DNA of 64,000 nt, taken from Cliona cf. orientalis. Taxonomy: Eukaryota > Porifera > Demospongiae > Clionaida > Clionaidae. The stretch lies in NCBI GenBank assembly GCA_963930775.1, contig OZ005700.1, forward strand, positions 3,365,476-3,429,475, given 5' to 3'. The notes beneath the pieces were generated by a model that saw only the letters and a list, made by a program, of their open reading frames with translations, was not told the origin of the DNA and did not search any database. The translations under genes and the position numbers were made by a program. This document shows positions 29,101-64,000 of the stretch, in pieces. The number at the start of each line of letters is the position of its first letter. Within the stretch, counting starts at the first letter, position 1.

Positions 29101-32100
29101 ATCGAATTCAATATAGTCGTATTCAGGCAGCAATCTATCCGGGTTAACATAGATAGCTCCTCCATACTTATCAGCAGAGTTGTTTATGAAAGTCATATTT
29201 GGAGAATCTTTACTTTTGAATGTCAACTGTGTTGAAAGTAGTGCCATAGCTCCTCCTCTGGAGGCTGAATTGCCCACAAATGTCATATTTATAGTATCTT
29301 TAGTAATCAGCTTTGAAAAGAGAAAAAGTATTCCACCTCCTGCTCTTTTAGCAGAATTATTGACGAAAGTCAAGTTTACACCACTTCCAATGCTTATCTG
29401 GGAAAGTACACTATAGGCAGCTCCACCTGCAGTAGCTGCAGAGTTATTTGCAAAAGTAACGGTTGCCCCACTCTCAATGAATGCAAATGATAGCATTATG
29501 GATAGTGCACCGCCTGAAGATGCTGAGTTATTTGTTAAAACCAGCCTTGACCCATTTTCAATATTTAAAATGCAATGCTGAAAAAGAACTAGAGCACCAG
29601 ATCTAGAGCTAAAGGGACTGTCGATACTGTTATTAAACAAAGTCAAACTGGCACCGAAGTTAACATTCAATGTGGATGCTTTGTTCAGATTTAGAGCTGT
29701 ACTTGCTATTGGTGCAGAGTTCTGTGAAAACGATACACATGCTCCGTATCCAATAGTCATTATTGATGCAAGCTCAACGTTCATAGCTCCAACCCTATAA
29801 ACGTAACAGTAGCGTAATTTTCAATATTAAGGCCAAATAAAATTGAATATTAGTTTCTCATCCCCGCCCGCCTCTAGTTTTTCCTCCGCCTGGCCATATT
29901 TTAATTCATGAATATCATTAAAACTATCATTAAAAAATGCATGAGGCATTACGTCATAGACGCGCCAATTTTTTAATGAAATTCATGATGACATTTAATG
30001 ATATTCATGACAAAAAATAAAATAAAAAGCCACCCTCCCGCCTGGGTATATTCCTGAAAATAGGATGAGAAACTAATAATCAATTTTGCTTGGCCTAACT
30101 TGGCTATGATTTTGAGCATCTAGGGCTCCAGTTTGATATGCCGCAAAATTATTAATAAAGGTTATCGTTGCATTGTGCGTGACGTTGAGGGCTGATGTTT
30201 TGAGCTGAGAGACATGGCTCCTGCAGCTGCTGCATATGCCATGCAATTTTTACCCCGCGCGCATGCGCAAGGGGTAAAGCAATCGGTTTGTCCGTCTGTT
30301 GTTGTCGTTGTTGTCGGCACGAAAATCGCCAGATCTGGAGTTCTAGGCGTCTCTGCGTGCTATAAGCACAATCAATCGGTAGATATCGGTGAAAAACTGG
30401 TTTGTACGCGCTTCGAATTTCTCAAAAAGGCTTACTAGTGCTACAAATCGTGCATTTTCTGTTCAGCATGCCTGTGGTTTATTGACCACACCCACTATTT
30501 TAGTATGCGGATGCGACTGCTCATGCTCAAGCACTGTGTTGGAAAGGGTCGTCACGTCATGAAACAGCTACATGTATGCCTCAGAGTGTTGCAATACTAT
30601 ATTACTAGTGTCATGCATGGCCTGTTTGGGGCGAGCCTGAGCTGAGCTTCTGAAAGTCTCTGTCAGTAGCTGAGACTCGAAAGCTTAACAAAGCCGTAGC
30701 ACAATAGATCATAATAAGACCACTGACACATATCCAAGCAGACAACGACAGACAGTCTCATAGTTCCGTGTAGGCCTATACAGCTGCATTTATATAGTTC
30801 CCTCGACATAGTGTCTGCCAACACTGAGTCAAGAGAAAGTTTAATTTTAGCTGCCTCTGTTGTCAGAGTCAGTTAGCAGCACGTCTATCTTTATCGCGTT
30901 CTTGGCTTGTCCTTGCGGTGTTGAGCTGACGACGAGTTCTGTCTCGCTCCCTCCTCCTTTGGAGCCCGGCAGGGTACGGTATAGCTTGATGCCAATGTTA
31001 GCTAGCTTACATGTCACTTCATGCAGGCACGAGTGTAAAGTTGGAATTCGCTAAATTAGAACGGCGTATATACGGCCCGTAGCCCAGGCATGAGAATGCG
31101 CAATAGAATATTTCGCGCTTATGCCTATATAGAGCCATGCTGGGTATATATTTCGCGTGACCGACGTACCATGATAATATATGATAATAATATAAAATTC
31201 GCGCACAGCTGTACCGTTTATGTGGGGCTCGCTCAGGCTCGCCCCAATTATTATACGCTATAGTGGCTTCAGAGCGCGCGGGGTATGTGCTCTACAGAGC
31301 TCTAGTTAAACATAATTTTCGAGTTGTTTTGAACATGAACTGTGGATAATGATACTTCTAAACCTCCTGATTGTTTACTAGCAGAGGACTTTATGAAGTT
31401 GATGGTAGCACTGCTACTGATTCTGAGTGTGGAGAGGATGATGCTCATTGATCCACCTACATGCCATGCTGAATTATTGATGAAGGTTATATTTGTATTT
31501 CTTTCCACTACCACTGTTGAATAACAGTATACATGAACAGCTCCACCTCGTATATGTGACAAATTATCAATGAAAATTATCCTTGTGTGCTCTCTGATGA
31601 TGAATGTGGAGATGCCTTCAAAGCTTTTGGTCAGATTCTGGCCATCCCACTCTAGATGTACAATAGTCTCTATTCATGTCATGGTGTATCACGATCTACC
31701 AAGCTGTAATAAGTACGTAGCTAGCCCCAGTGCTAGATTATATGATAGTTTCCAACCCAAGAACTCAATCACTGACAATTGGGTAGCTAATAATAATCAT
31801 TATTTTTATTATGCTTCAGGTCCATAATTTCTTCGAGCACAAGTCCCCTCAGTTCAACCTGCAGTACGCTGTGTATGTGCAACTCGACTGTCTTTGAGCC
31901 AGTCTGTGGAGCTGATGGTCTCACCTACTTCTCACCGTGTCAAGCAGCATGTCAAAAAAGCTACATCAATGGAGACCTCTCAGTAAGATGGATTGCTAAC
32001 CTCATCCCTGAGCTGGCTCTCCAGCTTCTATACATTGATCTTCCAGGCCCTCCTATTTTATCAAACAATTGGGAGGGCCTGAGGATGAGGCTTCTTGTGT

Positions 32101-40498: not shown

Positions 40499-43400
40499 AT
40501 GAAATACTTGGGCATATTTCTACTTCTGATTACTATCAATCAAGTGCTTTGCATGCACAATGCTCGTCAGCAGCGCTCATCTGGAAACTCAACATCACCA
40601 TTATCAATGGAAAAGATTCGATACAGCAATGACTGGGCTGTAGAGATTCATGGAGAGCCTGAAATGGCAGACCAAATAGCAAGAAGGTTTGGATTTATCA
40701 ACTTGGGACAGGTAAAAGTTAATATAATGTACGTAGGAACCACATGAACATATCTAAATAAATCACTTTTATTTAACTTTTCAGATAGGAAATCTGAAGA
40801 CAATGTATCATTTTCAACTGGATATCAATGACACCATTAGACAGGATAGTGAATATCACTTTCTGGCATCTAGAAAGCATGGAGAATGGAGTCAAATTGG
40901 AGAGAAATTTGTCACAAAATCAATGCAAGAAGAAATGCAAGGCATGGTGAGTTAGAGAGCTAGGCTAAGCTATACCATAGCTACACTGCTATAGAAACTA
41001 TATACGTTTGTCTCAGTATTTTTTGTCTATGATATTTCTTGCAATTGCAAGAATGCAAAGGACACAAAAAATACGTAGCAAAATGCTAGTGATAAACATG
41101 TGCCCGTATGTTAGATTTAAATGAGGATATTAGTAAGTGATGTACTAGGTAGATCTAGTTGATTCCATAATCTTATACTACGAGGTATACATACATAATA
41201 TAAGTTATAGTAATAAGTATGAGCAAAGGCAAAAAATGATTACGTGGATTTGAAGAACGAGTGACTCTTTGAATGTCATGGTGACAATATTACCAGGAAA
41301 ATAAAATACCGATAAACCACCGATTAATCTGAACATAGAGCACAATTAAGTCTAGATATTCTAAGCTCTTCTTTGCTGCATGTTTGGTACAGAGAAGAAT
41401 TGTTATACAGTATAGCAGCTCCTCCGATGATACAATTTGAAAAGGCTTCGGACAGCCTATATGCTCCAATAATAATATACTGCAAAACTTTAGTGTCAGT
41501 CTTGGTATTATATTATGTCATTGTGGTTGTCTCAGTTTCATGACTCCTTTCTAGATCATTAACCATTAGCATGAGAAGATCTCATTAAATTAATTATCTG
41601 AATATTCTAGATTCCTAATTGTAAACACCTTAATTTTCTGGAACATTAAGTTGATAATACACGCATATACAATATTATTATGATGTAATCTAGATTTGAG
41701 ACTAGAGTTTTCATGCATGCAGTCAGATAACTAGAATTATCTGAGAGCTAGCCGCACTACCATATACACTGCATGCTATTATACTGTTTCTCTTACAAAA
41801 GGCTCTGCAAGCCTTGAATGTAGACCCCTCCAATTGAAAAACTTATTTGAGTTAATAGTTACCAGGAACTCTCAAATCCAGTGGCTACATACCTTTGGCT
41901 TTTGCTTGCACATAGTTGATTAGAATCTTAGACTATAGGACTTTGAAACTGATCGAATTACTTTACAGGGCTCAAATTTAATGAAAATTCCATCACTACC
42001 TCTAATGGCAACTTGGTAACAAGCTGGTTTATAACAATGCACAAAAGATCCCTGTAATTATATACTTTACCAATATTGGCAACATGAGCCATCAATAAAT
42101 CCATTCTTTATTAATATAGAGATATTATATATATATTTATAAGGTTCTAAGGAATGCATGTTGTTTCATTGAAAGTTATTTGATCAAAGCCGCACCTGAA
42201 TCAAACTGCTAGGTTCTCGATTCCTTAATTGCAGTTGTTTTTAGTCCATGCCATAATGTTATATAATGTTGATTTACTGAGAGCATGCATGCAGTGTCAC
42301 TGTTTCTTAATTGTGATCATCCATAGCTACTAGTCTTGCTTCAACGCCACATATAATATTAATTCTCGTATATACTATAGGTTGGCTATGCTGAGCAGCA
42401 GGTACTCACAAAATATTCTAAGAAGGTATTCACTGCACCTTCAGATCCAGAATTCAGAAATCAGTGGTCGCTGGTAAGTACTCAGACACTGAATAATGAT
42501 CACTGTTGCTCTATTTATGTCATTAATATCCAATTGAAATGATATATGCATGCATGTATACAATCAATAAATGCAGCAAAACACAGGGCAGACAAGTGGT
42601 CCAGCTGGTAGAGATCTCAATGTTGTCCCAGCATGGATGCAAGGGATAACTGGAAAAGGAGTCGTCGTATCAGTTGTGGATGATGGTGAGTAGCTGATTA
42701 GTATCCATGCACTGTGAGAATAATATTGCATGCATACTTGTTCGTCCACTTCAGGACTGGAGAGACGCCATACAGACTTATCCCCCAACTATGTGAGTAA
42801 TATACAACATGTTGTAGCATGCCATTGATGAATCATCAACTTATTTTGTAACATGTGAACATCATTTAGGATCCTGAAGCAAGCTGGGACTTTGTGCGTG
42901 ATGATGGAGACCCTACACCAGATACACTCTTTGGAAGTGAGGCAGACCGTCATGGCACAAGCTGTGCTGGAGAGATAGGCATGGCTAAGAGCAATGGCCG
43001 CTGCGGGACTGGAGTTGCCCACGACTGCAATTTGGGTGGACTCAAGATTGATCTCAACAGTTTATCAGATTTACAAGTTGCAGATGCTCTAGGCCACAAT
43101 GACAGTTATATTAGTGTCTATAGCAATAGCTGGGGACCACTAGACTTCGGCTTTTCTGTAAGTGGACCTGGCTTTTTGACATCACTGACATTGATACTTG
43201 GAGCTCTGGCCGTAAGGATTTCGTGATTATTAGATATTGATAAGTTGGTCATTGGTATCATCCATTATACTCATAGGGACGAGATGGGAAGGGCAACATC
43301 TATGTTTGGGCTGCTGGCAATGGAGGAGGTTTCTTGGACTCTTGTGCGGCTGATGGCTATGTTTCAAGCATCTACACTATTGGGGTTGGAGCTGCTGATC

Positions 43401-45480
43401 AATTTGGCATCCAGGCCGAGTATGATGAGGAATGTGCATCGAAGATGGTTGTGACATTTAATCACAACTCTGCAACTTTTACAAGTTCTCCTTTTGATCA
43501 AGTGGTATGTGCATGTTAACTTCAAGTCATAAGCCATTAATAACAATAATGAAGCCACAGTACTTCAAAGCTAGTACAAACCACATAATACTCTAAAAGT
43601 CTCATATAAGCTAGGGTGTATGAAATTACACCCTAGCTGCATTTTCAATGGACCAGGTGGAAAACGTGACACTCCCTAATGTCTGGTTTAATTGTGGCAT
43701 CATAGTACAAGTCAACTGTACTATGTACCCTTCATGTGGTATAATGGAATTCCTTGGACTTTACCCTTGGAATTCCATTATACCACACTCAGGGTACAAT
43801 ACCCATACTCTTTAGAAAACCCTAGTTACTGCTATTACTTGTTTCTACTTATTGTACCCAGATCAGACTTCAATGCTTAAATAATAATTTTTTTAGACTA
43901 CAACAACTCTGAATAGCAGGTGCACGGATGATTTTACTGGAACAAGTGCCTCCACACCACTTGTATCGGGAGTGATCGCTCTGGCACTACAGGCAAAGTA
44001 AGCATTGTCAAGGAGTTTACTATCTGGTTTGAAGTTGCTGGATGCACTAGCTAGAGTACTAGTATTGAAATTGAATTCCCTCTTGGGGGGGGGGGGCATT
44101 AGCTATCACCACCCTAGCTTGACCTATACATAATATCCTATTGTAAATTCTCTGTAATGCAGTCCAAACATGACATGGCGTGATGTGCAGTATCTACTTG
44201 CCTACACATCAGATTCCAGTCGTCTGATCAACGGTGACTGGAGAGTGAATGGAGCAGGGCTGAGGGTGTCACACAAACATGGATTTGGTGCCATTGATGC
44301 GGAGGCCATGGTGACTAGGGCAAAGAGGTGGATCAATGTCCCACCACAAAGGATAGCTCGAATCAATGCATCAATAACTTCTGGGTATATTCATTATTAC
44401 TGATATGTTAATCATTACTCTAATATATATTTCTATAGCTCGGCACAGATATTTCAGTCACTCACGATAACCTTCAATGTGAATTCCTCCAACTCAAACA
44501 ACATAACTTTCCTTGAACATGTGGTGGTTCCTTTATCACTCTCAATTCAAGGACTGTCACAGAGTCAAACAGTCGGCATTTCTGATCTCATAGATGACCT
44601 CAATGCTGGTGGAGATATCCCTAGTTTTCTGGCAGCTCAGAATAATCCAAATCGAGGTGATATCAGAGTTGAGTTGACCTCTCCACAGGGAACAGTGTCT
44701 GTTTTGCTTCCAAACAGAGGCAATGATTTTATTAATGACGAAGGTTATTCCTCTTGGCCGTTCATGTCCGTTCACCACTGGGGAGAAGACCCAACTGGTC
44801 GGTGGACGCTTAGAGTAACATTCAATCCTGCATCTTTCACCGCTCGTGTCCAAGTAACACCACAGATGATGAGACTCTATGGCACCACTGAAACCCCAGC
44901 CGCTGTTGCTAGCATTCCATCCACCTGTCATCCATACTGTGCAAGAGGCTGCTCGGGTCCAACGGCTGCCGACTGTGACGTCTGTAGAGATTACCGACTC
45001 AATTCAACCCTGGAGTGTGTCACGGCATGCCCACAGGGCACCACTGAGCAGAATAATTACTGTTTTGGTATGCCAACTGCAACCACTACACCAAGTGCCA
45101 CTGAGACTGCTGGTACCACCACAACTGACCCAATAACTACTATTGCTGCTGCTACTACTACTGCTGATACCACAACAGTGAATGTTGATCACGAGACCAC
45201 TACAGCCATTCCTACCGATGCTACCACACCGACACCACTTGATATCAATCATGAGCAGACCACTGGACCAGGTGTGGTTGACACCACTGCAGTCTCACCC
45301 AGTGAGGTGACTGATGTCAGTACCTCAGCATCACCACCGACCACAAATAACATCCCAGCTACAGCTATTAATATGGGAAATAATGGCATGAATAGAAATT
45401 CATCCTCTGTTAGTAGATCCAATTTTTTGATCAATTTAGCTCTAATTTTATTTGTTGTAGCACTAGTCAAGCTGTTTTAA
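40499..45480 (+). CDS. PCSK: Furin-type proprotein convertase, copy 1, 10 exons
   Basis: Exons: 40499-40711, 40785-40946, 42381-42473, 42577-42685, 42755-42792, 42870-43211, 43277-43504, 43897-43997, 44163-44384, 44439-45480, joining to 849 aa. I chose the ATG at 40499 because it begins a signal peptide ([18 protein letters not shown]). A prodomain follows ([21 protein letters not shown]) ending near KYSKK, a plausible autocleavage site. The S8 triad is complete: Asp in VVSVVDDG, His in [10 protein letters not shown], Ser in [10 protein letters not shown], with oxyanion Asn in WAAGNGG. A P domain, a furin-type Cys-rich repeat ([17 protein letters not shown]), a Thr-rich mucin-like stalk and a C-terminal hydrophobic segment ([18 protein letters not shown]) follow; the last looks like a membrane or GPI anchor signal. 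It would cleave precursors at basic sites in the secretory pathway. Confidence 0.92.
43609..43638. repeat. Perfect 12-bp hairpin in convertase-1 intron 7
   Basis: AGCTAGGGTGTA, loop TGAAAT, then the exact inverted repeat. The same hairpin is at 58632-58661 in the second convertase. Confidence 0.85.
43725..43797. repeat. 18-bp hairpin MITE in convertase-1 intron 7
   Basis: GTGGTATAATGGAATTCC (43736-43753) and its exact inverted repeat (43769-43786) around a 15-nt loop, with outer GTACCC/GGGTAC. The paralog carries the same structure with longer outer ends (GTATATGGGTTGTACCC). Confidence 0.8.
44085..44096. repeat. 12-base G run in convertase-1 intron 8
   Basis: Homopolymer equivalent to the longer interrupted G tract at 59113-59138 of convertase 2. 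Confidence 0.85.
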
Positions 45481-47464: not shown

Positions 47465-50400
47465 ATGAAATCCTTGGGCACATTTCTGCTTCTGACTACT
47501 ATCAATCAAGTGCTTTGCATGCACTTACCTGACAACCCTCGTCAGCAGCGCTCATCTGGAAACTCAACATTGCCATCATTACTATCAATAGAAAAGATTC
47601 GATACAGCAATGACTGGGCTGTAGAGATTCATGGAGGGCCTGAAATGGCAGACCAAATAGCAAGAAGGTTTGGATTTATCAACTTGGGACAGGTAAAAGT
47701 TATTAACATAATTTAGGAACCATGCACACGGACATAAGCATATATATAGCTAATTGCTTTAATTTAATATTCCAGATAGGAAATCTGAAGACAATGTATC
47801 ATTTTCAACTGGATATCAATGACACCATTAGACAGGACAGTGAATATCACTTTCTGGCATCTAGAAAGCATGGAGAATGGAGTCAAATTGGAGAGAAGCT
47901 TGTCACAAAATCAATGCAAGAAGAAATGCAAGGCATGGTGAGTTAGAACTAGGCTAAGCTATACCATACACTGCTATAATATTATAGCGACTACATAGTT
48001 ATATACATAATATATTATTATCATAGTATATCTTGCGTACGTACGTACGTATACGTTTGTCTTACTGTTTGTCTATAATATTTCTTGCAATTACAAAGGA
48101 CACAAAAATTTAATAGCAAAATGCTGGTGATAAACTTGTGCCCGTATGTAAGATTTAAACGAAGATATGATAGTGTTAATATTAGTAAGTGATGTATATA
48201 GGTAGTAAATTCCATAATCTTATACTATGAGGTACATATAAGTTATAAGAATAACAAGTATATATATATATATATATGAGGAAAAGGACAATAATGAATG
48301 AATGTGGATTTGAAGAACGAGTGACTCTTTGAATGTCATGGTGACAATAAAATATTACCAGGAAAATAAAATAAACCATAAGCTAAGATTATTCTGAACA
48401 TAGAGCACAAGTCTAGCTAGATAAGCCCTTCTTTGCTGCAAGTTTGGAACATAGAGCACAAGTCTATAGCTAGATAAGCCCTTCTTTGCTGCAAGTTTGG
48501 TACGGAGAAGGCTTCAGACGCCTATACTCCAATAATTATTATCGCAAAACTTTAGTGTCAGTCTTGGTATTATATTATGACATTGTAGTTGTCTCAGTTT
48601 CATGACTCCTTTCTAGATCATTAACCATTAGCATGAGGAGATCTCATTGTCTGAATATTCCAGATTCCTAGTTGTAAACAGCTTAATTTTCCGGAACATT
48701 AGTTAATGATACATGCATATAATTGTATATTACCTTAAAGGAATCGTTTCGTACGTACTAAAATTGAAATTTGATCGTCCATTAAGAGTAATTTACCCTC
48801 ATCTATAGCTAGAATCTCTATGCATCACACTTAGACTAGAGTTTTCAGTATTATAATAATGCAGATCTAGATGTATTACAGTATAACCAGTACTATAGTG
48901 AGTCTCCAACGAACTTTTAAATTATCATATATGTAGAAAAGGTTGAAATGACTGTAACTTATTTTTTAGAGTAGCTATAGATAATATAATCATGCATTAT
49001 TATAATATGTACCCACTATATAGCAATTATAACTAGAATTAGAGCTACCATAATATGTGACCTGCTCTGAGAAACTGAGTACAATGGTGCAAGTTTCAAG
49101 GAAAAATATTGATCACAAGTGAAGTTATGACCATTTTTATTCACTCGGGTGGATACAGTCGTTTTCTGTTTTTTAATTAAATTCTGTATTATATATCGGA
49201 GCAATTAATTGCGCCCATAGCTACATTTTACTTGATACAAATGTATAAACATAATAATATTACATCAAAATGAAGCCAGGACCTTCAATTTTTTGATAGA
49301 CTAAAAAGTAGAAAATTGAAGAAAAGCAGATTTTTTCACATTTCAGCCATTATTGCATGGAAATGAATATTTACGTGCTAAGGTCCTTTTTCTCGGAGCA
49401 GGTCACATATACGCTGTTAATTAATATACTGCTTCTCTTACGAAAGGCTCTGCATAGCCTTGAATGTATATTCCTCCAATTGAAAAACTTATTTGAGTTA
49501 ATAGTTAACAGGAACTCTGAAACCCTGCAAATTGCTTGGCTATATACCTTTGGTTTTTGCTTGCACAGTCTTGCTTTAACGCCACATAGTATTATTATAA
49601 TAACTCTCCTATATACTATAGGTTGGCTATGCTGAGCAGCAGGTACTCACAAAATATTCTAAGAAGGTATTTATTGCACCTTCAGATCCAGAATTCAGAA
49701 ATCAGTGGTCGCTGGTAAGTACTCAGACACTGAATAATGATCTGATTCACTGTTGCTCTGTTTATGTCATTGATATCCAATTGAAAATGATACATGTATA
49801 CAATCAATAAATGCAGCTAAACACAGGGCAGACAAGTGGTCCAGCTGGCAGAGATCTCAATGTTGTCCCAGCATGGATGCAAGGGATAACTGGAAAAGGA
49901 GTCGTCGTATCAGTTGTGGATGATGGTGAGTTTATAGCTGCTGATTATTATGAATGTATCCATACACTGTGCATGGGAATATCAGTATATGCATACTTGT
50001 TCATCCACCTCAGGACTAGAGAGACGCCATACAGACTTATCTCCCAACTATGTGAGTAGTACTACATGTGTTGTAGCATGCCATTGATGACTCATCAAGA
50101 ATAATTGGGGCGAGCCTGAGCGAGCCCCACATAAACGGTACAGATGCCCAGCATGGCTCTATGGACATAAGCGCGAAATATTCTATTGCGCATTCTCATG
50201 CCTGGGCTACGCGCCGTATATACGCCGTTCTAATTTAGTGAATTGCAAATTTACACTCGTGCCTGCATGTAAGTAAGCTAGGAGCTACCGTTAGTATCAA
50301 CTTCTGTACCGCGCCGGACTCCAAAAGAGGAGAGAGCGAGACAGAGCTCGTCGTCAGCTCACCAGCGCAAGGACCAGCTAAGAACGCGATAAAGATAGAC

Positions 50401-53400
50401 GTGCTGCTAACCGACCCTGACAATAGCGTGTCCAAAGAATTTCGAAAACTTGGTTCTGAAAACTGGTACAAGGATGCTACAGGCATGAAGAGCAACCTTA
50501 GAGCAGCCGAACAATATGCATATTGCTGGGGATTTACTCCGTTTTCTTGGTTCTACAACCTTTTGAAGTTACTCACTACTGTCTCTCTTTTTGCTCCTTG
50601 CATAGTACTACAGACATGGCACCATACAAACTTAGTCTCGTGAACCAGACCACTCCCTCCACAGCACTGGATGTATTGCATCACCAGCACGATGCAATAC
50701 ATCCAGTGCTGTGGAGGGAGTGGTCTGGTTCACGAGACTACATACAAACTATGGGCCACCAAGGGTCCCCAGAAAATCTACAATATCTCAGCTCTGGTTA
50801 GGAGTTCAATCACGAAACAAATTGCACCAGATAGCTCACAGAATGAGCTATCAATTGACCTCTTAACTATGTAAATTGGTTGCACAGAAGCGCCGCTAGC
50901 TTCATTTTTGTTTGTATTAAGTTTATATGGAGAAAGTGGTTTGGATGGGTATGCCATATTGCCTTGCAATGGTTTTATTTACGATTGTGTTACAAATACT
51001 GTTGGATAGTACTTGCAAATAGCATGATAGTGGGACTTCAATACTGCTTTAGGTTACTGCTGAACCTGGGGTCTCTATCTTTAGAGCCCAGCAGAGTGAG
51101 TTTCTTTCCACAATACCAAGCTATAACTATTTCTATATCACTAAATCTGAATGAAATTACCTAAAAAGTATATTCCACAAAAACGTAGGCCATCAACGAC
51201 TTGCAATGATGCATATTATTGAAATCAGCACTAGAAAAAACCTAAGGACCACTAAAAGTTTTGGAGGTAATGAATACTCACAAACCTACGCAGAAACAGC
51301 AGAAATAAGTGCCAGAAAAATTATGTATTGATGTTGCTTACCATCAAATCCAGAAAGTACAGCAAAAGAGCTGCCGATTGACGTGCGAAGCATGGAAAAC
51401 GGTCGAGAATTGGCTTGTGGATATGAAAATTTGTAATGTCACTTTATGGTGCCGCGTTTAGATAGAGTATAACGCGTAAAAAACAAGCGACGCATTTTTG
51501 CGGGTTATAATTGTCCTTTGAACTCGCTACTGACAATAGAGGCAGGCTACCGTAGACTCTGGTTAATAAGCGCATGCGCTTATAGCGGTAAACGGAATGA
51601 CAGTATGCGCTTAATAAAGGATATGCGCTTATACGGCACATAACCACGCCCACAAGCGTTTGGGCACGTGATGGATGCGAGGCCTGGGCCTGGCTAGAGC
51701 TAGCTATAGCTAACACTAGCGCTCGATCGATCGATCGAGCACTTTAACGTTTACAGTTGCCGCTCGAGCTGACGAGTGCTGGCGATTAGTCGATCTTCTT
51801 GCATGATAACGTTATTCGTGGCCATCATTTCTCCAAAGATAGCTGGAGTCCAACTACTTTCCAGCCGGTCAAGGTCAGCTTCATAGAATGCCACGCCTAT
51901 TAAGCGCATGCGCTTAAGGTACCATTAAATTGCGTGGGCGTGAGGTGGGGGATATGACACCTAAACCACATCAAAGTCATTAGTGAGGTGCACGTTGTGT
52001 AACCACGCCCTTTTAATTGCACAGGTCTCAGGGGTGTGGCTGCTAGAGCCGGAAGTGTTCATTTAATATCCTCCATGGACCGGAAGCCGAGCCGGAAGGG
52101 AGGGGCCAGGCCACGCCCAAAACAGCCCCACCCTGTTCCCCAAGGACCACCATTCTCAATCAAGTGCCTACTAACCACCGGATGTCCACCGGAAGCCCAC
52201 AATCAATCCCAATTAAAACACACAGCTTCCTCAAGGCCAAAACACACACAAACACTTGGAGGCCGTTCTGCCACACCGCCCACGCAAGAGCTCACCTCAT
52301 TTCCTGTGTGGGCGGGGCAACAACACGTCATCGCAACCACATCCGCTTCAAACCATCGTCAGCTTCCGTCCAGCCGTACAGGCCCCTCGATCGCACCGCC
52401 GTACAGTGCCTCATTAACAGACATGGCCTCACCTTTGACCTCCTGCCACGCCCCCAAAGCCTCCTCGCGGGGTTCAAAGGTCACCACCGCTTCCGGGACA
52501 CGCCCACCTATCGCCGAGGCCAAGTCCCAGGCGCCGATGTCCAAGCACTGGCCCGTGAAGCCACGCCCAATCGGAAGCAATAAAACCTGCATTAACGCAC
52601 ACGCACACACTCCACACAGTGCCAGGAACACGCCCACATGCTTAATTAGGCCAAATTAGCTTTTTTTTTTTTTTTGTCGTTGCGGTTAATAGTTAAGCAA
52701 GAATGCTTTGATCTTGCTTTGATGTGGGCAATTACCGGCCTTTTCTTCAGGAGCCACTTCCGGTCGCTAATTACACGCGCATAATCATCGCTGGCCGATT
52801 CTGGACACGCCCACCTTCGACCAAAAGCACTCGTATGGCCTCTTCGGCCACGCCCCTTCACGATTCGCTAATTGAATTAGCCATTCCTGACGCTCACGCC
52901 CACGCAATTAAATGGTACCTTAATAAACAATAGCTTATGACAAGAAGAGGGCATGCGCTTAATAAATAATGTGCGCTTAATAGCGAGGTGCGCTTAATAA
53001 CCAGAGTTTACGGTAAATTAAAATTATCTTGTCTCTTGACTGTTGGCAGACACTATGTCGAGGGAACTAGCTATCGTGCAGATGTATAGGCCTACATAGC
53101 ACTATGAGACTGTCTGTCATTGTATGCTTGGATATGTGTCGGTGGTCTGCATGATCTATTGTGCTATGGCTTTGTTAAAGTTTTCGAGTCTCAGCTACTG
53201 ACAGAGACTTTCAGAGGCTCAGCTCAGGCTCGCCCCAAACAGGCCCTGCATGACACTAGTAACTTATTACCCCTTGCGCATGTTACCCCGCGCGCATGCG
53301 CAAGGGGTAACTTAGTAATCGGTCGTGTCGTCCTTGTTATCGTTGTCGTCGTCAGTGGCGTAGCTACACCAGGGCCTACCAGGGCACAGGCCCAGGCCAA

Positions 53401-56400
53401 ACTGGCCCTTGCCCTGGTAAAATAGCCAATTCAATTAAGGATCAAGTACTGTGACCTCAAAGCAAAAATAAATGAATCATGTTAAGGTACCATTTAATTG
53501 CGTGGGCGTGAGCGTCAGGAATGGCTAATTCAATTAGCGAATCGTGAAGGGGCGTGGCCGAAGAGGCCATACGAGTGCTTTTGGTCGAAGGTGGGCGTGT
53601 CCAGAATCGGCCAGCGATGATTATGCGCGTGTAATTAGCGACCGGAAGTGGCTCCTGAAGAAAAGGCCGGTAATTGCCCACATCAAAGCAAGATCAAAGC
53701 ATTCTTGCTTAACTATTAACCGCAACGACAAAAAAAAAAAAAAAAAGCTAATTTGGCCTAATTAAGCATGTGGGCGTGTTCCTGGCACTGTGTGGAGTGT
53801 GTGCGTGTGCGTTAATGCAGGTTTTATTGCTTCCGATTGGGCGTGGCTTCACGGGCCAGTGCTTGGACATCGGCGCCTGGGACTTGGCCTCGGCGATAGG
53901 TGGGCGTGTCCCGGAAGCGGTGGTGACCTTTGAACCCCGCGAGGAGGCTTTGGGGGCGTGGCAGGAGGTCAAAGGTGAGGCCATGTCTGTTAATGAGGCA
54001 CTGTACGGCGGTGCGATCGAGGGGCCTGTACGGCTGGACGGAAGCTGACGATGGTTTGAAGCGGATGTGGTTGCGATGACGTGTTGTTGCCCCGCCCACA
54101 CAGGAAATGAGGTGAGCTCTTGCGTGGGCGGTGTGGCAGAACGGCCTCCAAGTGTTTGTGTGTGTTTTGGCCTTGAGGAAGCTGTGTGTTTTAATTGGGA
54201 TTGATTGTGGGCTTCCGGTGGACATCCGGTGGTTAGTAGGCACTTGATTGAGAATGGTGGTCCTTGGGGAACAGGGTGGGGCTGTTTTGGGCGTGGCCTG
54301 GCCCCTCCCTTCCGGCTCGGCTTCCGGTCCATGGAGGATATTAAATGAACACTTCCGGCTCTAGCAGCCACACCCCTGAGACCTGTGCAATTAAAAGGGC
54401 GTGGTTACACAACATGCACCTCACTAATGACTTTGATGTGGTTTAGGTGTCATATCCCCCACCTCACGCCCACGCAATTTAATGGTACCTTAACCCGCGT
54501 TAACCTATTATATAATAATGTATGAGAGTTACTTCAGTTGCACACACTTTTTAATTCTCCCATGACAGTTCTCAGCATAATCCAGTTAATCATAGTAATT
54601 AACACCGTGTTCACTCCACTACACATAATTATATCAAGTATGCATGCCAGTCTGGCATATTGCACGTACTTCTTGTTCAGTTTTGAAAATTATTATGGGA
54701 CAATTAAGGTACCATTTAATTACGTGGGCGTGAGCGTCAGGAATGGCTAATTCAATTAGCGAATCGTGAAGGGGCGTGGCCGAGAGGCCATACGAGTGCT
54801 TTTGGTCGAAGGTGGGCGTGTCCAGAATCGGCCAGGGATGATTATGCGCGTGTAATTAGCGACCGGAAGTGGCCCCTGAAGAAAAGGCCGGTAATTGCCC
54901 ACATCAAAGCAAGATCAAAGCATTCTTGCTTAACTATTAACCGCAACGACAAATTACACAACAAGTAGAAAAAAAAAGCAAATTTAAATAATTAAATAAT
55001 TAAATAATCTAATTCATGGGGGGTTTGGGAGCACTTGGGGGGATAATTTTTACATGGGCACGCAGAATGGGTCAAAACTAGAATTTTGATGGCGGGAAAT
55101 TTTGATTCACACCTTACAATTAAAGTTATGGCCCTTTGAAGTTTCCCCATATGTTTGTATAGGAAGCCATGCATTTGCAATGTTTCCGCCCACGCGCTAC
55201 GTGAGGGGCGGGGCTACGCGCGCACATAGACGTGTCGACCTTTACCCAATTTGGCCAAAATTGGAGTATAGGCTGCCTGCTTGCATTGTATGGCTCTACT
55301 AAGCATCCAGCTCAACTATATCATGGTTTCCGGACAATTTTTTTTCTGCTTGTTGTGTGGTCTCCTTGAAAAAAAAAAAAAAAAAAAAAAGCTAATTAGG
55401 CCTAATTAAGCATGTGGGCGTGTTCCTGGCACTGTGTGGAGTGTGTGCGTGTGCGTTAATGCAGGTTTTATTGCTTCCGATTGGGCGTGGCTTCACAGGC
55501 CAGTGCTTGGACATCGGGGCCGGGGACATGGCTGCGGCGATGGGTGGGCGTGTCCCGGATGCGGTGGTGACCTTTGAACCCGTCCAGGAGGCTTTGGGGG
55601 CGTGGCAGGAGGTCAAAGGTGAGGCCATGTCTGTTAATGAGGCACTGTACGGCGGTGCGATCGAGGGGCCTGTACGGCTGGACGGAAGCTGACGATGGTT
55701 TGAAGCGGATGTGGTTGCGATGACGTGTTGTTACTCCGCCCACACAGGAAATGAGGTGAGCTCTTGCGTGGGCGGTGTGGCAGAACGGCCTCCAAGTGTT
55801 TGTGTGTGTTTTGGCCTTGAGGAAGCTGTGTGTTTTAATTGGGATTGATTGTGGGCTTCCGGTGGACATCCGGTGGTTAGTAGGCACTTGATTGAGAATG
55901 GTGGTCCTTGGGAAACAGGGTGGGGCTGTTTTGGGCGTGGCCTGGCCCCTCCCTTCCGGCTCGGCTTCCGGTCCCTGGAGGATATTAAATGAACACTTCC
56001 GGCTCTAGCAGCCACACCCCTGAGACCTGTGCAATTAAAAGGGCGTGGTTACACAACATGCACCTCACTAATGACTTTGATGTGGTTTAGGTGTCATATC
56101 CCCCACCTCACGCCCACGCAATTTAATGGTACCTTAAGTAGTAAGTGCAAGTAATATTATGCCAGTAACAAACTCGCATGTTTGACGTAGTTATGTATAG
56201 TGGAGTGAATACTTCATTAATTAATCACTATGATTAACCGAGTTATTTTGAGAACCATCATGGGAGAAGGTAGTGCATGTATGCATGCAACTTAGGCAAC
56301 CCACATTATGGGTTAAGTTAACAACCCACTTGTTTTGGCTGTGAGGTATATAGTTATTACAAATGTAATAAGATTTTTTTCATTGGGTTGGGAGAGATCG

Positions 56401-59400
56401 AGGTCGATAGGAGTCTCAAATTCTCAAGTCACTACTGGGTCCACCAAGTGCCCGGGTAACGTTACAAGTCTAGATACGCCACTGGTCGTCGTTAGCACAA
56501 AAATCGCCATATCTCGAGATGTAGGCATCTAAGCGACTTGTAAGTACAACGAATCAATCGAATTCGGCGAAAAACTGGCTTCAGTCCGTGTCAAATCGAG
56601 GGATATATGGTCCACGAGCGTCACAAATTGTGCCTTTTCGTTGGCCACCGTAGCCACGCCTATCGACAGTGCCCACAATGATTAATACATGATGCATGCC
56701 CACTGTGCTTTCTGCTCATGCGCACAACTAAGTGGCCAAGCGTATGACTGGTAAAGATCGTCGATGTTCTAAATAACATCTATAGTGACTGAAACTTGAA
56801 GCTTATGGAACCAAAGATAGCTATACTATAGCTATAGCTATACTATAAATATTATAGGTAAAAGTGCATGCTTCCTAGGTCTGGGTGCAGAGAGCACTTT
56901 TCAAGTCTCACCGGGACCCCCAGCAACTAAGCGGCATTTTCATCAATTATAGCCATGCACCAAAAGTAAATCTATAAATTTAATTGCGCAATATGGAGCT
57001 TATTTTGTGTCAAAATCATGAATTTGATTTTTAGAGTGAAATACAATGTGATCAGGCAATATCAACTTCAAATTTGATATTCACTTTGATTTTCTGTTCG
57101 ATTTTCAATTTGATTTTCAATACGATCTTCAATTTGATTTTTCATTTGATTTTCTGTTCAATTAACTTTTCGCTTTGACTTTCGATTGTTCACATTTCAT
57201 TGTTCTATAACCCAGATCAGGTTCCAATGCTCATTTTCATGAGTGTAATGCTGTCTCTCAACAATAATTTACTTGCCTGGCGACCTTTATTAGTTTTTAT
57301 TAGCAAGAATTAACCACTGTGAGGTTCCTATCATTCAACTTGAGAGCAATATTTCACTTCGGTTTGTGCTGCATTGAATATAATAAATGTCACCATGCAA
57401 GTTAAATGTAATTATTGTTGAGAGAGGATTGCACTCTAATGAAAATGACCAATGGAACCTGTTCTGGGTTATAGAGTAATGGAATATGAAACGATTGAAA
57501 ATCAAACAAAAATTTAACCGAGAATCAAGTGAAAAATCAAATTGAAGATCACATTGTGAAAGTCAAATCGAAAATCGAATGGAAAATCAAATTGAAAATC
57601 AAATTGAAAATCAAATCAAAAATTGAATTGAAAATCAAGTGAAAATCAAATTGAAAATCGAATGAAAAGTCAAAATTTAAACTACGAACAAAATGAAAAC
57701 TTTATTTCACAGTTGATACTGCCCGATCACATTATATTTCACATTCTAAATCAAAATTCTGATTTTTGACACAAAATAAGCTCCATAGCGCAATGTGCGC
57801 GCAGGGTATGTGCTCTACAGAGCTCTAGTTTTGTAACATGTAATCAAGAGTAATACCTTATTTTTGTAACATGTGAACATTATTTAGGATCCTGAAGCAA
57901 GCTGGGATTTTGTGCGTGATGATGGAGACCCTACACCAGATACACTCTTTGGAAGTGAGGCAGACCGTCATGGCACAAACTGTGCTGGAGAGATAGGCAT
58001 GGCTAAGAGCAATGGCCGCTGCGGGACTGGAGTTGCTCACGACTGCAATTTGGGTGGACTCAAGATTAACATCAGCAGTTTATCAGATTTGCAAGTTGCA
58101 GATGCTCTAGGCCACAATGATAGTTATATTAGTGTCTACAGTAACAGCTGGGGACCACTAGACTTCGGCTTTTCTGTAAGTGGACCTGACTTTTTGTCAT
58201 CACTGACATTGATACTTGGAGCTCTGGCCGTAAGGATTTTGTGATTATTAGATATTGATAAGTTGGTCATTGGTATCATCCATTATACTCATAGGGACGA
58301 GATGGGAAGGGCAATATCTATGTTTGGGCTGCTGGCAATGGAGGAGGTTTCTTGGACTCTTGTGCGGCTGATGGCTATGTTTCAAGCATCTACACTATTG
58401 GGGTTGGAGCTGCTGATCAATTTGGCATCCAGGCTGAGTATGATGAGGAATGTGCATCGAAGATGGTTGTGACATTTAATCACAACTCTGCAACTTTTAC
58501 AAGTTCTCCTTTTGATCAAGTGGTATATCCATGTTAACTTCAAGTCATAAGCCATTAATAACAATAATATGATGAAGCCACAGTACTTCAAAGCTAGTAC
58601 AAACCACATAATACTCTAGAAGTCTCATATAAGCTAGGGTGTATGAAATTACACCCTAGCTGCATTTTCAAGTATGGTGGAAAACACTCCCTAATGTCTG
58701 GTTTAATTGTGGCATCATAGTACAAGTCAACAGTACTATGGTATATGGGTTGTACCCTTCATGTGGTATAATGGAACTCCTTGGGCTTTACCCTTGGAAT
58801 TCCATTATACCACACTCAGGGTACAATACCCATACTCTTTAGAAAACCCTATTTACTGCTATTACCTGTTTCTACTTATTGTACCCAGATCAGACTTCAA
58901 TGCTTAAATAATAATTTTTTTAGACTACAACAACTCTGAATAGCAGGTGCACGGATGATTTTACTGGAACAAGTGCCTCCACACCACTTGTATCGGGAGT
59001 GATCGCTCTGGCACTACAGGCAAAGTAAGCATTGTCAAGGAGTTTACTATCTCGTTTGAAGTTGCTGGATGCACTAGCTAGAGTACTAGTATTGAAATTG
59101 AATTCACTCTTGGGGGGGGGGGGGGGGGGGAGGGGGGGCATTAGCTATCACCACCCTAGCTTGACCTATACATATCCTAATTATGCAGTCCAAACATGAC
59201 ATGGCGTGATGTGCAGTATCTACTTGCCTACACATCAGATTCCAGTCGTCTGATCAACGGTGACTGGAGAGTGAATGGAGCAGGGCTGAGGGTGTCACAC
59301 AAACATGGATTTGGTGCCATTGATGCGGAGGCCATGGTGACTAGGGCAAAGAGGTGGATCAATGTCCCACCACAAAGGATAGCTCGAATCAATGCATCGA

Positions 59401-60489
59401 TAACTTCTGGGTATAATCATTATTACTGATATGTTAATCATTACTCTAATAATAATATATTTCTATAGCTCGGCACAGATATTTCAGTCACTCACGGTAA
59501 CCTTCAATGTGAATTCCTCCAACTCAAACAACATAACTTTCCTTGAACATGTGGTGGTTCCTTTATCACTCTCAATTCAAGGACTGTCACAGAGTCAAAC
59601 AGTCGGCATTTCTGATCTCATAGATGACCTCAATGCTGGTGGAGATATCCCTAGTTTTCTGGCAGCTCAGAATAATCCAAGTCGAGGTGATATCAGAGTT
59701 GAGTTGACCTCTCCACAGGGAACAGTGTCTGTTTTGCTTCCAAACAGAGGCAATGATTTTATTAATGACGAAGGTTATTCCTCTTGGCCGTTCATGTCCG
59801 TTCACCACTGGGGAGAAGACCCAACTGGTCGGTGGACGCTTAGAGTAACATTCAATCCTGCATCTTTCACCGCTCGTGTCCAAGTAACACCACAGATGAT
59901 GAGACTCTATGGCACCACTGAAACCCCAGCTGCTGTTGCTAGCATTCCATCCACCTGTCATCCATACTGTGCAAGAGGCTGCTCGGGTCCAACGGCCGCT
60001 GACTGTGACGTTTGTAGAAATTACCGACTCAATTCAACCCTGGAGTGTGTCACAGCATGCCCACAGGGCACCACTGAGCAGAATAATTACTGTTTTGATA
60101 TGCCAACTGCAACCACTACACCAAGTGCCACTGAGACTGCTGGTACCACCACAACTGACCCAATAACTGCTACTGCTGCTGCTACAGTGAATGTTGATCA
60201 CGAGACCACTACAGCCATTCCTACCGATGCTACCACACCGACACCACTTGATATCGATCATGAGCAGACCACTGGACCAGGTGTGGTTGACACCACTACA
60301 GTCTCACCCAGTGAGGTGACTGATGTCAGTACCTCAGCATCACCACCGACCACAAATAACATCCCAGCTACAGCTATTAATATGGGAAATAATGGCATGA
60401 ATAGAAATTCATCCTCCGTTAGTAGGTCCAATGTTTTGATCAATTTAGCTTTAGTTTTATTTGTTGTAACGCTAGTCAAGTTGTTTTAA
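47465..60489 (+). CDS. PCSK: Furin-type proprotein convertase, copy 2, 10 exons with a giant intron 5
   Basis: Exons: 47465-47692, 47776-47937, 49622-49714, 49817-49925, 50014-50051, 57888-58229, 58295-58522, 58924-59024, 59189-59410, 59469-60489, joining to 847 aa. Eight of ten exons have the same length as copy 1. The signal peptide is [18 protein letters not shown]. The triad is intact ([28 protein letters not shown]) with WAAGNGG. P domain, Cys-rich repeat, Thr-rich stalk and hydrophobic C-terminus are all kept; the Thr-rich stretch is a few codons shorter. Copy 1 has [10 protein letters not shown], so the residue beside the catalytic His neighbourhood differs. Intron 5 is 7.8 kb instead of 77 bp but its splice sites agree with copy 1. 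Nothing in the coding sequence suggests loss of function. Confidence 0.9.
48396..48499. repeat. Tandem duplication of about 52 bp in convertase-2 intron 2
   Basis: GAACATAGAGCACAAGTCTA ... GCAAGTTTG occurs twice head to tail, 48396-48446 and 48447-48499, with one 2-bp difference in length. Convertase 1 has one copy. Confidence 0.85.
49053..49410. mobile_element. 358-bp MITE in convertase-2 intron 2
   Basis: ATATGTGACCTGCTCTGAGA and its inverted copy (TCTCGGAGCAGGTCACATAT) form the ends. No open frame; absent from the matching intron of convertase 1. Confidence 0.7.
50634..50739. repeat. Perfect palindrome: 49-bp arms, 8-nt loop
   Basis: 50634-50682 is the exact reverse complement of 50691-50739, around loop ACCAGCAC. 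The direct repeat CATACAAACT lies on both outer sides (50624 and 50741). Confidence 0.95.
51548..53015. mobile_element. Inverted-repeat element nested in the family B Helitron-like copy
   Basis: TACCGTAGACTCTGGTTAAT at 51548 and the inverse of TACCGTAAACTCTGGTTATT at the right end are the termini. AAGCGCATGCGCTTA-type palindromes follow. About 470 bp is its own; the rest is the TTAA element at 51918-52919. No transposase. Confidence 0.7.
51918..52919 (+). mobile_element. TTAA-flanked GGTACC element, copy A (1.0-kb form)
   Basis: GGTACCATTAAATTGCGTGG at the left, inverted at the right end, flanked by TTAA on both sides. TTAA duplication is typical of piggyBac and Kolobok transposons. The interior is GC-rich with many CACGCCC/GGGCGTG words and a T run; it has overlapping open frames of 207 and 139 codons without a known domain. 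Nearly identical to copies B, D and E. Confidence 0.8.
53486..54489 (-). mobile_element. TTAA-flanked GGTACC element, copy B (1.0-kb form)
   Basis: Inverse orientation of copy A and almost identical to it, including the A/T run and the same open frames on the other strand. TTAA at 53482-53485 and 54490-54493. Confidence 0.8.
54708..56133 (-). mobile_element. TTAA-flanked GGTACC element, copy C (1.43-kb form)
   Basis: Same ends and flanking TTAA (54704-54707, 56134-56137) as the other copies, with an extra 0.4 kb at the homopolymer site. It differs from A and B at more positions (for example TTACGTGGG for TTGCGTGGG near the end), so it is an older or different lineage. Confidence 0.8.
54951..55368. 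mobile_element. Internal 0.4-kb inverted-repeat segment of copy C
   Basis: ACACAACAAGTAGAAAAAAA at the left and TTTTTTTCTGCTTGTTGTGT at the right bracket sequence shared with 63066-63480 in copy D (CCCCATATGTTTGTA, CACGCGCTACGTGAGGGGCG). It sits where copies A and B have only a homopolymer run. Confidence 0.6.
56993..57787. mobile_element. Fold-back element with arms of a short AT-rich tandem repeat
   Basis: Ends ATGGAGCTTATTTTGTGTCA and its inverse, flanked by GCGCAAT at 56986-56992 and 57788-57794. The arms (about 280 and 390 bp) consist largely of variants of GAAAATCAAATT in opposite orientation around a spacer near 57290-57400. The copy-4 remnant at 61223 shows the uninterrupted site. 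No gene. Confidence 0.75.
58632..58661. repeat. Perfect 12-bp hairpin in convertase-2 intron 7
   Basis: Identical to 43609-43638 of the paralog; the hairpin MITE also follows here at about 58741-58837. Confidence 0.85.
59113..59138. repeat. Long interrupted G run in convertase-2 intron 8
   Basis: 18 G, one A, then seven G; the paralog has 12 G at the same place. Confidence 0.85.
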
Positions 60490-62270: not shown

Positions 62271-62297
62271 TTGAGTGTGTGTTACCAAGATTTTTAA

Positions 62298-63727
62298 GGT
62301 ACCATTAAATTGCGTGGGCGTGAGGTGGGGGATATGACACCTAAACCACATCAAAGTCATTAGTGAGGTGCATGTTGTGTAACCACGCCCTTTTAATTGC
62401 ACAGGTCTCAGGGGTGTGGCTGCTAGAGCCGGAAGTGTTCATTTAATATCCTCCATGGACCGGAAGCCGAGCCAGAAGGGAGGGGCCAGGCCACGCCCAA
62501 AACAGCCCCACCCTGTTCCCCAAGGACCACCATTCTCAATCAAGTGCCTACTAACCACCGGATGTCCACCGGAAGCCCACAATCAATCCCAATTAAAACA
62601 CACAGCTTCCTCAAGGCCAAAACACACACAAACACTTGGAGGCCGTTCTGCCACACCGCCCACGCAAGAGCTCACCTCATTTCCTGTGTGGGCGGGGCAA
62701 CAACACGTCATCGCAACCACATCCGCTTCAAACCATCGTCAGCTTCCGTCCAGCCGTACAGGCCCCTCGATCGTACCGCCGTACAGTGCCTCATTAACAG
62801 ACATGGCCTCACCTTTGACCTCCTGCCACGCCCCCAAAGCCTCCTCGCGGGGTTCAAAGGTCACCACCGCTTCCGGGACACGCCCACCTATCGCCGAGGC
62901 CAAGTCCCAGGCGCCGATGTCCAAGCACTGGCCCGTGAAGCCACGCCCAATCGGAAGCAATAAAACCTGCATTAACGCACACGCACACACTCCACACAGT
63001 GCCAGGAACACGCCCACATGCTTAATTAGGCCAAATTAGCTTTTTTTTTTTTTTTTTTTTTTTTCAAGGCGACCTGAACACTAAGCAGAAAAAAAAAATT
63101 GTCCAAAAACCACCACAAAATCAAGCTGGGTGCATAGTGGAACCATACAATGCAAGCAGGCAGGCTATAAATTTCAATTTTGTCAAAAAGTTGGTAAAGG
63201 TCGTCACGTTTATGTGCGCGCGTGGCCCCGCCCCTCACGTAGCGCGTGGGTGGAAACATTGCAAACGCATGGCTTCCCTGTACAAACATATGGGGAAACT
63301 TCAAAGGGCCGTAACTTCGATTCTAAGGCGTGAATCAAAATTCCCCAAGGTCAAATCTCTAGTTTTGACCCATTCTGCGTGCCCATGTAAAAATTATCTC
63401 CCCAAGTACTCCCCAACCCCCCAAACATTAATTAATTATATAAATTCTTTTTTTTTTTCTACTTAGTGTTTAATTTAAGTCGTTGCGGTTAATAGTTAAC
63501 TTAAGCAAGAATGCTTTGATCTTGCTTTGATGTGGGCAATTACCGGCCTTTTCTTCAGGAGCCACTTCCGGTCGCTAATTACACGCGCATAATCATCGCT
63601 GGCCGATTCTGGACACGCCCACCTTCGACCAAAAGCACTCGTATGGCCTCTTCGGCCACGCCCCTTCACGATTCGCTAATTGAATTAGCCATTCCTGACG
63701 CTCACGCCCACGCAATTAAATGGTACC
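62298..63727 (+). mobile_element. TTAA-flanked GGTACC element, copy D (1.43-kb form)
   Basis: Same termini and TTAA flanks (62294-62297 and 63728-63731). Outside the internal 0.4-kb segment it is almost identical to copy A, differing at isolated positions in the first kilobase. Confidence 0.8.
63066..63480. mobile_element. Internal 0.4-kb inverted-repeat segment of copy D
   Basis: AACACTAAGCAGAAAAAAAA and TTTTTTTTTCTACTTAGTGT are inverted ends. The body is homologous to 54951-55368 in copy C. Confidence 0.6.
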
Positions 63728-63731
63728 TTAA

Positions 63732-64000
63732 GGTACCATTAAATTGCGTGGGCGTGAGGTGGGGGATATGACACCTAAACCACATCAAAGTCATTAGTGA
63801 GGTGCATGTTGTGTAACCACGCCCTTTTAATTGCACAGGTCTCAGGGGTGTGGCTGCTAGAGCCGGAAGTGTTCATTTAACATCCTCCATGGACCGGAAG
63901 CCGAGCCGGAAGGGAGGGGCCAGGCCACGCCCAAAACAGCCCCACCCTGTTCCCCAAGGACCACCATTCTCAATCAAGTGCCTACTAACCACCGGATGTC
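63732..64000 (+). mobile_element. TTAA-flanked GGTACC element, copy E, cut by the window end
   Basis: Begins immediately after the TTAA that ends copy D, in the same orientation, so one TTAA serves both. The visible 269 bp match copy D closely. Confidence 0.8.

What the first reader, a model, noticed from the sequence alone, without database searches (positions are those of the whole stretch)
50052..57887. One intron grew from 77 bp to 7.8 kb by nested transposon insertion after a tandem gene duplication
Convertase 1 intron 5 is 77 bp; convertase 2 intron 5 has the same edges but contains a family B Helitron-like copy (with an inverted-repeat element, itself holding a TTAA element), then a family A Helitron-like copy (with a hAT-like element holding two TTAA elements, one of which contains another segment, plus a fold-back element). 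The order of events can be read from who interrupts whom, and the splice sites remain intact. This gives a relative insertion chronology within one intron.
Basis: partly seen in the sequence, partly recalled or inferred. Interest (0 to 1): 0.8.

Follow-up and report, generated by a model that had tools for sequence, protein, structure and literature searches.

The report
Nested transposons swell one intron
One short intron of a duplicated protein-processing enzyme gene swelled to 7.8 kb because eleven mobile elements of nine kinds landed in it, many inside one another, which is a clear and readable but ordinary example of how introns grow.

Summary
Intron 5 is 77 bp in convertase gene 1 and 7,836 bp (50052-57887) in gene 2; both genes keep ten exons, intact frames and GT..AG sites. 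Two more distant paralogs have intron 5 of 69 and 64 bp, so the short form is probably ancestral.

About 7.7 kb is two Helentron-type elements, B and A, side by side, with nested inserts. Uninterrupted copies of all six interrupted elements exist: A 29 of 29, B 30 of 30, C 7 of 7, hAT-like 8 of 8, MITE 9 of 9, TTAA 9 of 9 copies examined. Age estimates follow the nesting in 8 of 8 relations, but for TTAA3 only after closer copies were added, and not all differences are significant.

The pre-insertion intron was about 120 bp, not 77. The TTAA3 segment is a poly-A-tailed element found at the same A-run in 26 of 75 exact 5' ends. TTAA1 and TTAA2 are nearest neighbours, suggesting a local jump. 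Splicing is untested.

The parts
47465..50051 (+). convertase gene 2, exons 1-5
   Evidence: gene model, intact frame to exon 10; Pfam Peptidase_S8, P-domain, pro-domain
57888..60489 (+). convertase gene 2, exons 6-10
40499..45480 (+). convertase gene 1 (10 exons); its intron 5 (42793-42869, 77 bp) is the empty counterpart
   Evidence: dS 0.054, dN 0.014 against gene 2
50052..57887 (+). gene 2 intron 5, 7,836 bp, GTGAGT..TAG
50107..53259 (+). element B: non-autonomous Helentron/HINE-type, 15-bp subterminal inverted repeats GGGGCGAGCCTGAGC / GCTCAGGCTCGCCCC, 3' end CTAG, T/T target; ~0.6 kb without its inserts
   Evidence: nearest copies 96% identical
   Evidence: 39 other places with C; B empty at this site in 30 of 30 loci
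50633..50740 (.).
   Evidence: 7 of 7 other C copies lack it
51550..53013 (+). TA-flanked inverted-repeat MITE inside B (459 bp without its insert)
   Evidence: several copies 99-100% identical and empty
51914..52923 (+). TTAA1 element inside the MITE, target TTAA
   Evidence: MITE empty at this site in 9 of 9 loci
53267..57828 (+). element A: non-autonomous Helentron/HINE-type, TTACCCC.. to ..GCTCTAG, T/T target; ~0.6 kb without its inserts
   Evidence: nearest copies 84% identical
53353..56484 (+). hAT-like element inside A (CAGTGGCGTA..TACGCCACTG, 8-bp TSD GTCGTCGT at 53345-53352 / 56485-56492); 694 bp without its inserts
53482..54493 (-). TTAA2 element inside the hAT-like element, inverted relative to TTAA1 and 99.7% identical to it
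54704..56137 (-). TTAA3 element inside the hAT-like element
54952..55377 (+). poly-A-tailed ~425-bp segment at the A-run of TTAA3
   Evidence: 100% identical to a free-standing copy (L069)
56992..57787 (.). fold-back element inside A (arms begin TATGGAGCTTATTTTGTGTCAAAA, 6-bp TSD GCGCAA at 56986-56991 / 57788-57793)
50052..50106 (+). host left edge of the intron
   Evidence: aligns with gene 1 intron 5
53260..53266 (+). host bases left between B and A (TAACTTA), matching AACTTAT of gene 1
   Evidence: sequence
57829..57887 (+). host right edge, including the second unit of a ~33-bp tandem repeat of the target site

Best explanation
After the convertase gene was duplicated in tandem, intron 5 of gene 2 (by then about 120 bp) received two non-autonomous Helentron-type elements at neighbouring T/T sites, probably A first and then B. 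Other elements then landed inside them. In A: a hAT-like element, a fold-back element, two TTAA elements within the hAT-like element, and a poly-A-tailed segment in one of these. In B: element C, a palindrome within C, a TA MITE, and a TTAA element within the MITE. Two of the TTAA copies probably arose by a short-range jump. Because the insertions lie between intact splice sites and away from the exons, the intron can still be spliced out. Shown: boundaries, target duplications (not for the poly-A segment), empty copies, multicopy status, short introns in gene 1 and two paralogs, intact reading frame. Inferred: the A-before-B order, the local jump, in-situ insertion of each layer, and continued splicing.
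For: Intron 5 is 77 bp in gene 1, 7,836 bp in gene 2, and 69 and 64 bp in two more distant paralogs. Target marks. Uninterrupted copies at the insertion sites: A 29 of 29 loci, B 30 of 30, C 7 of 7, hAT-like 8 of 8, MITE 9 of 9, TTAA 9 of 9. Terminal branches (substitutions per site): A 0.097, hAT-like 0.011, TTAA2 0.000, fold-back 0.001, B 0.013, C 0.0045, MITE 0.002, TTAA1 0.001; TTAA3 0.005 once closer copies were added. The segment has 0 private changes in 416 columns. Inner is not older than outer in 8 of 8 relations (7 by branch, the segment by private changes). The two genes have dS 0.054 and dN 0.014 with full-length frames.
Against: In one search, before closer copies were added, TTAA3 had a branch of 0.0146, longer than the hAT-like element around it (0.0107). 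On private changes fold-back against A, hAT-like against A, TTAA2 against hAT-like and C against B are significant; MITE against B (p 0.07) and TTAA3 against hAT-like (p 0.25) are not; TTAA1 against MITE and segment against TTAA3 were not tested this way. The C tree holds only 5 other copies. The palindrome-in-C relation was not dated. The branch of A (0.097) exceeds half the synonymous divergence of the two genes (0.027), which taken literally would put A before the duplication; the branch is an upper bound and introns 3-5 differ at 29 of 242 sites, so this is unresolved. One of 39 other C places has a 60-bp, 82% match to B about 470 bp upstream. The two paralogs are taken as outgroups by sequence distance; no tree was built. 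No transcript data.
Confidence: 0.9

Rival explanations
1. The nest was assembled elsewhere and some layers arrived as ready-made composites, so 'who interrupts whom' does not date events in this intron.
For: The TTAA + segment combination occurs elsewhere: 7 of the 8 segment copies fetched lie at the A-run of a TTAA element, 26 of 75 exact 5' ends genome-wide have this junction, six of them with the very junction of TTAA3 (one search count, the window copy included), and the copy at 62294-63731 carries a related segment at the same place.
Against: All A, B, C, hAT-like and MITE copies examined are empty at the insertion sites (these are the best matches, not all copies). For the segment, copies with it are scattered over the tree of the TTAA arms, junctions take 14 forms in 26 copies, and the segment differs less than the arms in 7 of 7 comparisons with TTAA3 (Fisher p below 0.05 in 5; 0.050 and 0.124 in the others, the last with the closest relative L108; the comparisons share TTAA3 and are not independent). 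This favours separate insertions at a hot spot.
Confidence: 0.08
2. The large intron predates the duplication and gene 1 lost the whole block (deletion or gene conversion with a short-intron paralog).
For: Nominal age of A (0.097) is larger than half of dS (0.027).
Against: Two more distant paralogs also have short introns. B, C, MITE, fold-back and TTAA1/2 copies have short branches. Gene 1 keeps ATCAACTTATTTTGTAACATG uninterrupted.
Confidence: 0.05
3. Assembly artefact: repeats were misjoined between the two halves of gene 2.
For: Several repeat copies above 99% identity nearby.
Against: Frame, splice sites and both intron edges match gene 1, the locus was found once, and the layers have their own target duplications.
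Confidence: 0.03

Closest known systems
Helentron / HINE (DINE-1-like) non-autonomous rolling-circle elements (PMC4067079; passages read)
   Same: Subterminal inverted repeats (13 bp in a typical A copy, 15 bp in B), palindromic 5' subterminal repeat (by eye), T/T target without TSD
   Different: No autonomous partner with Rep/helicase/endonuclease was sought; 3' stem-loops are weak by folding; both end in CTAG, which fits the Helitron CTRR
Nested-insertion chronologies (TEnest and the human interruption study as cited in PMC5657132; passages read)
   Same: Relative order of elements read from who interrupts whom
   Different: Here one intron only, checked by empty copies and branch lengths
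piggyBac-type TTAA MITEs (recalled)
   Same: TTAA on both sides, terminal inverted repeats
   Different: No transposase sought; assignment by target site only
hAT MITEs (recalled)
   Same: 8-bp TSD, CAGTGGCG..CGCCACTG ends
   Different: No transposase sought; assignment by ends and TSD

Membership tests
Helentron/HINE (elements A, B) | subterminal inverted repeats of about 11-15 bp | tested here: met
   B 15 bp exact; A 13 bp in a typical copy, eroded to 7 bp in the window copy
Helentron/HINE (elements A, B) | insertion within TT, no TSD | tested here: met
   flank after CTAG begins with T in 28 of 29 A loci; flank before GGGGC ends in TT in 29 of 30 B loci (read by eye; in a few B loci with long spans, such as L053, L056, L057 and L067, the two ends may belong to neighbouring copies)
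Helentron/HINE (elements A, B) | 3' terminal stem-loop | tested here: inconclusive
   weak: -4.6 kcal/mol for A; for B -2.5 kcal/mol and not the CAGG/CCTG stem seen by eye
Helentron/HINE (elements A, B) | autonomous partner encoding Rep/helicase/endonuclease | not tested
   no search made
   5' ends are TTACCCC and TTGGGGC, target T/T
hAT | 8-bp TSD | tested here: met
   window copy and 8 of 8 fetched copies (read by eye)
hAT | hAT transposase partner | not tested
   no search made
piggyBac-type (TTAA elements) | TTAA target and terminal inverted repeats | tested here: met
   three window copies and 8 of 8 loci printed; inverted repeats
SINE (segment in TTAA3) | RNA polymerase III A and B boxes | tested here: not met
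   no B box on either strand of two segments; A-box-like hits only on the reverse strand of one (simple patterns of my own recall)
proprotein convertase (furin type) | S8 catalytic domain, P domain, pro-domain | tested here: met
   Pfam above gathering cut-offs for both proteins

The most novel reading that the evidence does not exclude
A poly-A-tailed, probably RNA-copied element of about 425 bp uses the internal A-run of one abundant TTAA transposon as a landing pad: 26 of 75 exact 5' ends in the genome sit there with 14 different junctions, so DNA elements carrying an A-run act as repeated targets and possibly vehicles for the retroposon.
Probability: 0.5. Interest if true: 0.45.

Novelty: new member of a known kind. 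Interest (0 to 1): 0.3.

Why it matters
It is a clean worked case in which a tandem gene copy keeps the empty site and two more distant paralogs point to the direction of change, so growth of one intron by 7.7 kb can be followed layer by layer. It does not change what is known about how introns grow. The side result, one A-run hit repeatedly by the same poly-A element, is a testable statement about target choice.

Tried and rejected
A step in gene 1/gene 2 divergence at the insertion (the insert as a barrier to gene conversion) was tested. Introns 3-5 differ at 29 of 242 sites and introns 6-9 at 25 of 652, and noncoding sites just left and right of the insertion differ at 27 of 218 and 14 of 473 (p 5.5e-6). 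But coding sites do not differ (4 of 147 and 16 of 574), and the best single change point lies in exon 6 near 43179 of gene 1, not at the insertion. Not claimed.

I first took the TTAA3 segment as inherited with its carrier because the copy at 62294-63731 has a segment at the same spot. The tree of the arms, the junction forms and the lower divergence of the segment made separate insertion at a hot spot more likely, though the comparison with the closest relative (L108) is not significant (p 0.12).

Rfam matches in the intron (17 at E up to 1, 16 of them on the palindrome) are all below gathering scores and are taken as chance matches to a hairpin. Literature searches: (sponge genome, Helitron; 2 papers listed; SINE/MITE hot spot; 0; Porifera transposons; listing only) gave nothing usable; these searches are too narrow to say that anything is not in print.
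Full report
What was checked. The window is C12:3365476-3429475 of an unnamed 216.8-Mb genome in 149 contigs. The gene structure and furin-type proteins point to an animal; a sponge is my guess from recall, not from a call. Two tandem genes encode furin-type proprotein convertases (Pfam S8 catalytic domain, P domain and pro-domain for both). Each has ten exons and an intact frame, of 849 and 847 residues. Intron 5 is 42793-42869 (77 bp) in gene 1 and 50052-57887 (7,836 bp) in gene 2, both GTGAGT..TAG. dS is 0.054 and dN 0.014, so gene 2 looks constrained despite its large intron.

Direction of change. A search with exons 4-6 of gene 2 gave six places from six candidates: gene 1, the two halves of gene 2, an exon-6 fragment on C13, and two paralogs further up C12. 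The two paralogs have intron 5 of 69 and 64 bp. They are less similar to genes 1 and 2 than these are to each other; no tree was built. On this basis the short intron is ancestral and the large one derived in gene 2. No second haplotype of the locus turned up.

Anatomy. The host bases left in the intron are 50052-50106, seven bases between B and A, and 57829-57887: 121 of 7,836. Read without inserts, gene 2 has ATCAAGAATAAT-AACTTAT-TTTTGTAACATGT followed by a second, similar unit ATCAAGAGTAATACCTTATTTTTGTAACATGT that gene 1 lacks (sequence). The intron was thus about 120 bp when the first element arrived, and the second unit serves as an empty-site witness inside the same intron.

Element B (50107-53259) and element A (53267-57828) have marks given for Helentrons and HINEs in PMC4067079 (passages read): subterminal inverted repeats (15 bp in B; 13 bp in a typical A copy, 7 bp left in the window copy) and T/T targets. 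The flank after CTAG begins with T in 28 of 29 A loci, and the flank before GGGGC ends in TT in 29 of 30 B loci (read by eye; in a few B loci the two printed ends may belong to neighbouring copies). The 3' stem-loops are weak by folding. The canonical Helitron TC end and A/T target are not met. The window copy of A has 16 extra bases at its 5' end (TTACCCCTTGCGCATG) that are an inverted copy of its own hairpin arm.

Inside A lie a hAT-like element (53353-56484; 8-bp TSD here and in 8 of 8 copies), TTAA2 and TTAA3 within it, a poly-A-tailed segment in TTAA3, and a fold-back element (56992-57787; 6-bp TSD here and in 6 of 7 copies). The counts in this paragraph were read by eye. That makes eleven elements of nine kinds.

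Empty copies. Queries were composed from each host element without its inserts and searched in the genome (40 candidates scored of 3128, 1062, 96 and 1155). In one search, single alignments crossed the insertion sites in 29 of 29 A loci, 30 of 30 B loci, 8 of 8 hAT-like loci, 9 of 9 MITE loci, 7 of 7 C loci (palindrome site) and 9 of 9 TTAA loci (segment site). These are best matches only: the other A loci and the B loci that cut out, and 8 hAT-like, 9 MITE, 7 C and 9 TTAA loci of the 40 scored in each search. One search prints the site alignments for 9 other copies each of A and B, 8 hAT-like and 9 MITE copies. In one search, none of the 39 other C places has an alignment running on into B; one has a 60-bp, 82% match to B about 470 bp upstream. 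So the composites were, as far as seen, made here.

Chronology. Terminal branches of the window copies among fetched copies are: A 0.097; B 0.0133; hAT-like 0.0107; C 0.0045; MITE 0.0022; fold-back 0.0014; TTAA1 0.001; TTAA2 0.000 (with 29, 24, 8, 5, 9, 7 and, for TTAA, 9 fetched copies plus the window copy at 62294; 6 of 30 B and 2 of 7 C loci were left out for coverage of 85% or less). TTAA3 had 0.0146, longer than the hAT-like element around it. After seven segment-bearing copies were added, of which L108 proved its close relative, it has 0.0052. The segment has no private change in 416 columns. With the second TTAA3 value the inner layer is not older than the outer in 8 of 8 relations; the palindrome was not dated. 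On private changes fold-back and hAT-like are younger than A (p 1.5e-8 and 1.3e-4), TTAA2 is younger than the hAT-like element (0.0016), C is younger than B (0.039), and A is older than B (0.002). MITE against B (0.07) and TTAA3 against hAT-like (0.25) are not significant. These branches are upper bounds because only the best candidates were fetched. The branch of A is longer than half the synonymous distance of the genes (0.027). Introns 3-5 differ at 29 of 242 sites, so the date of A relative to the duplication rests on the empty site in gene 1 and in the two paralogs, not on branch lengths.

TTAA copies. TTAA1 and TTAA2 differ at 1 site of the aligned arms (about 980 columns), are 99.7% identical over their length, and lie 558 bp apart in opposite orientation. 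With the copy at 62294-63731 they form a group with 96% support, sharing two changes absent from 17 other copies. TTAA2 is the best match of TTAA1 among the 40 scored of 1646 candidates. A short-range jump is the simplest reading; local hopping is described for Sleeping Beauty and reported as weaker for piggyBac (PMC3952818, passages read).

The segment. The ~425-bp segment ends in a long A-run and also stands free (L069, 100% identical). Exact matches to its 20-base 5' end number 75 in the genome. 26 matches have CCGCAACGAC, the sequence before the A-run of TTAA elements, within 25 bases upstream, with 14 junction forms. 7 of 8 copies fetched, picked from the top of the list, lie in TTAA arms, and are scattered over the arms' tree. 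It has no pol III boxes by simple patterns, and its two ends can pair. I read this as a hot spot for a poly-A retroposon. Slippage of the A-run, or conversion of the segment between copies, could imitate part of it.

Verdict. It is a tidy example of a known process, with reading order from interruption already in use (PMC5657132, passages read). The main open points are splicing of the 7.8-kb intron and the timing of A relative to the duplication.

Noticed in passing
54952-55377 and genome-wide: Poly-A-tailed segment found at the same A-run of TTAA elements for 26 of 75 exact 5' ends, 14 junction forms; possible landing pad.
   Followed up: partly
30250-31307: A second nest in the window: a B copy on the minus strand lies inside an A copy, close to the A 3' end.
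   Followed up: partly
62294-64000: Two TTAA elements directly adjacent and sharing a TTAA; other close-set groups elsewhere, e.g. three copies at C7:6672638-6675784.
   Followed up: no
L076:971-1271 (C13:5642670-5642970): A 301-bp fragment of convertase exon 6 and the start of intron 6, 93.7% identical to gene 1; no other convertase exon matched in the 2-kb stretch fetched.
   Followed up: partly
L074, L075 (C12, about 20 and 40 kb before the window): Two further convertase paralogs in opposite orientation; L075 seems to change frame near the catalytic His in exon 6.
   Followed up: no
50144: The window copy of B lacks about 50-60 bp near its 5' end that the copy at 30602-31252 and many others keep.
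   Followed up: no
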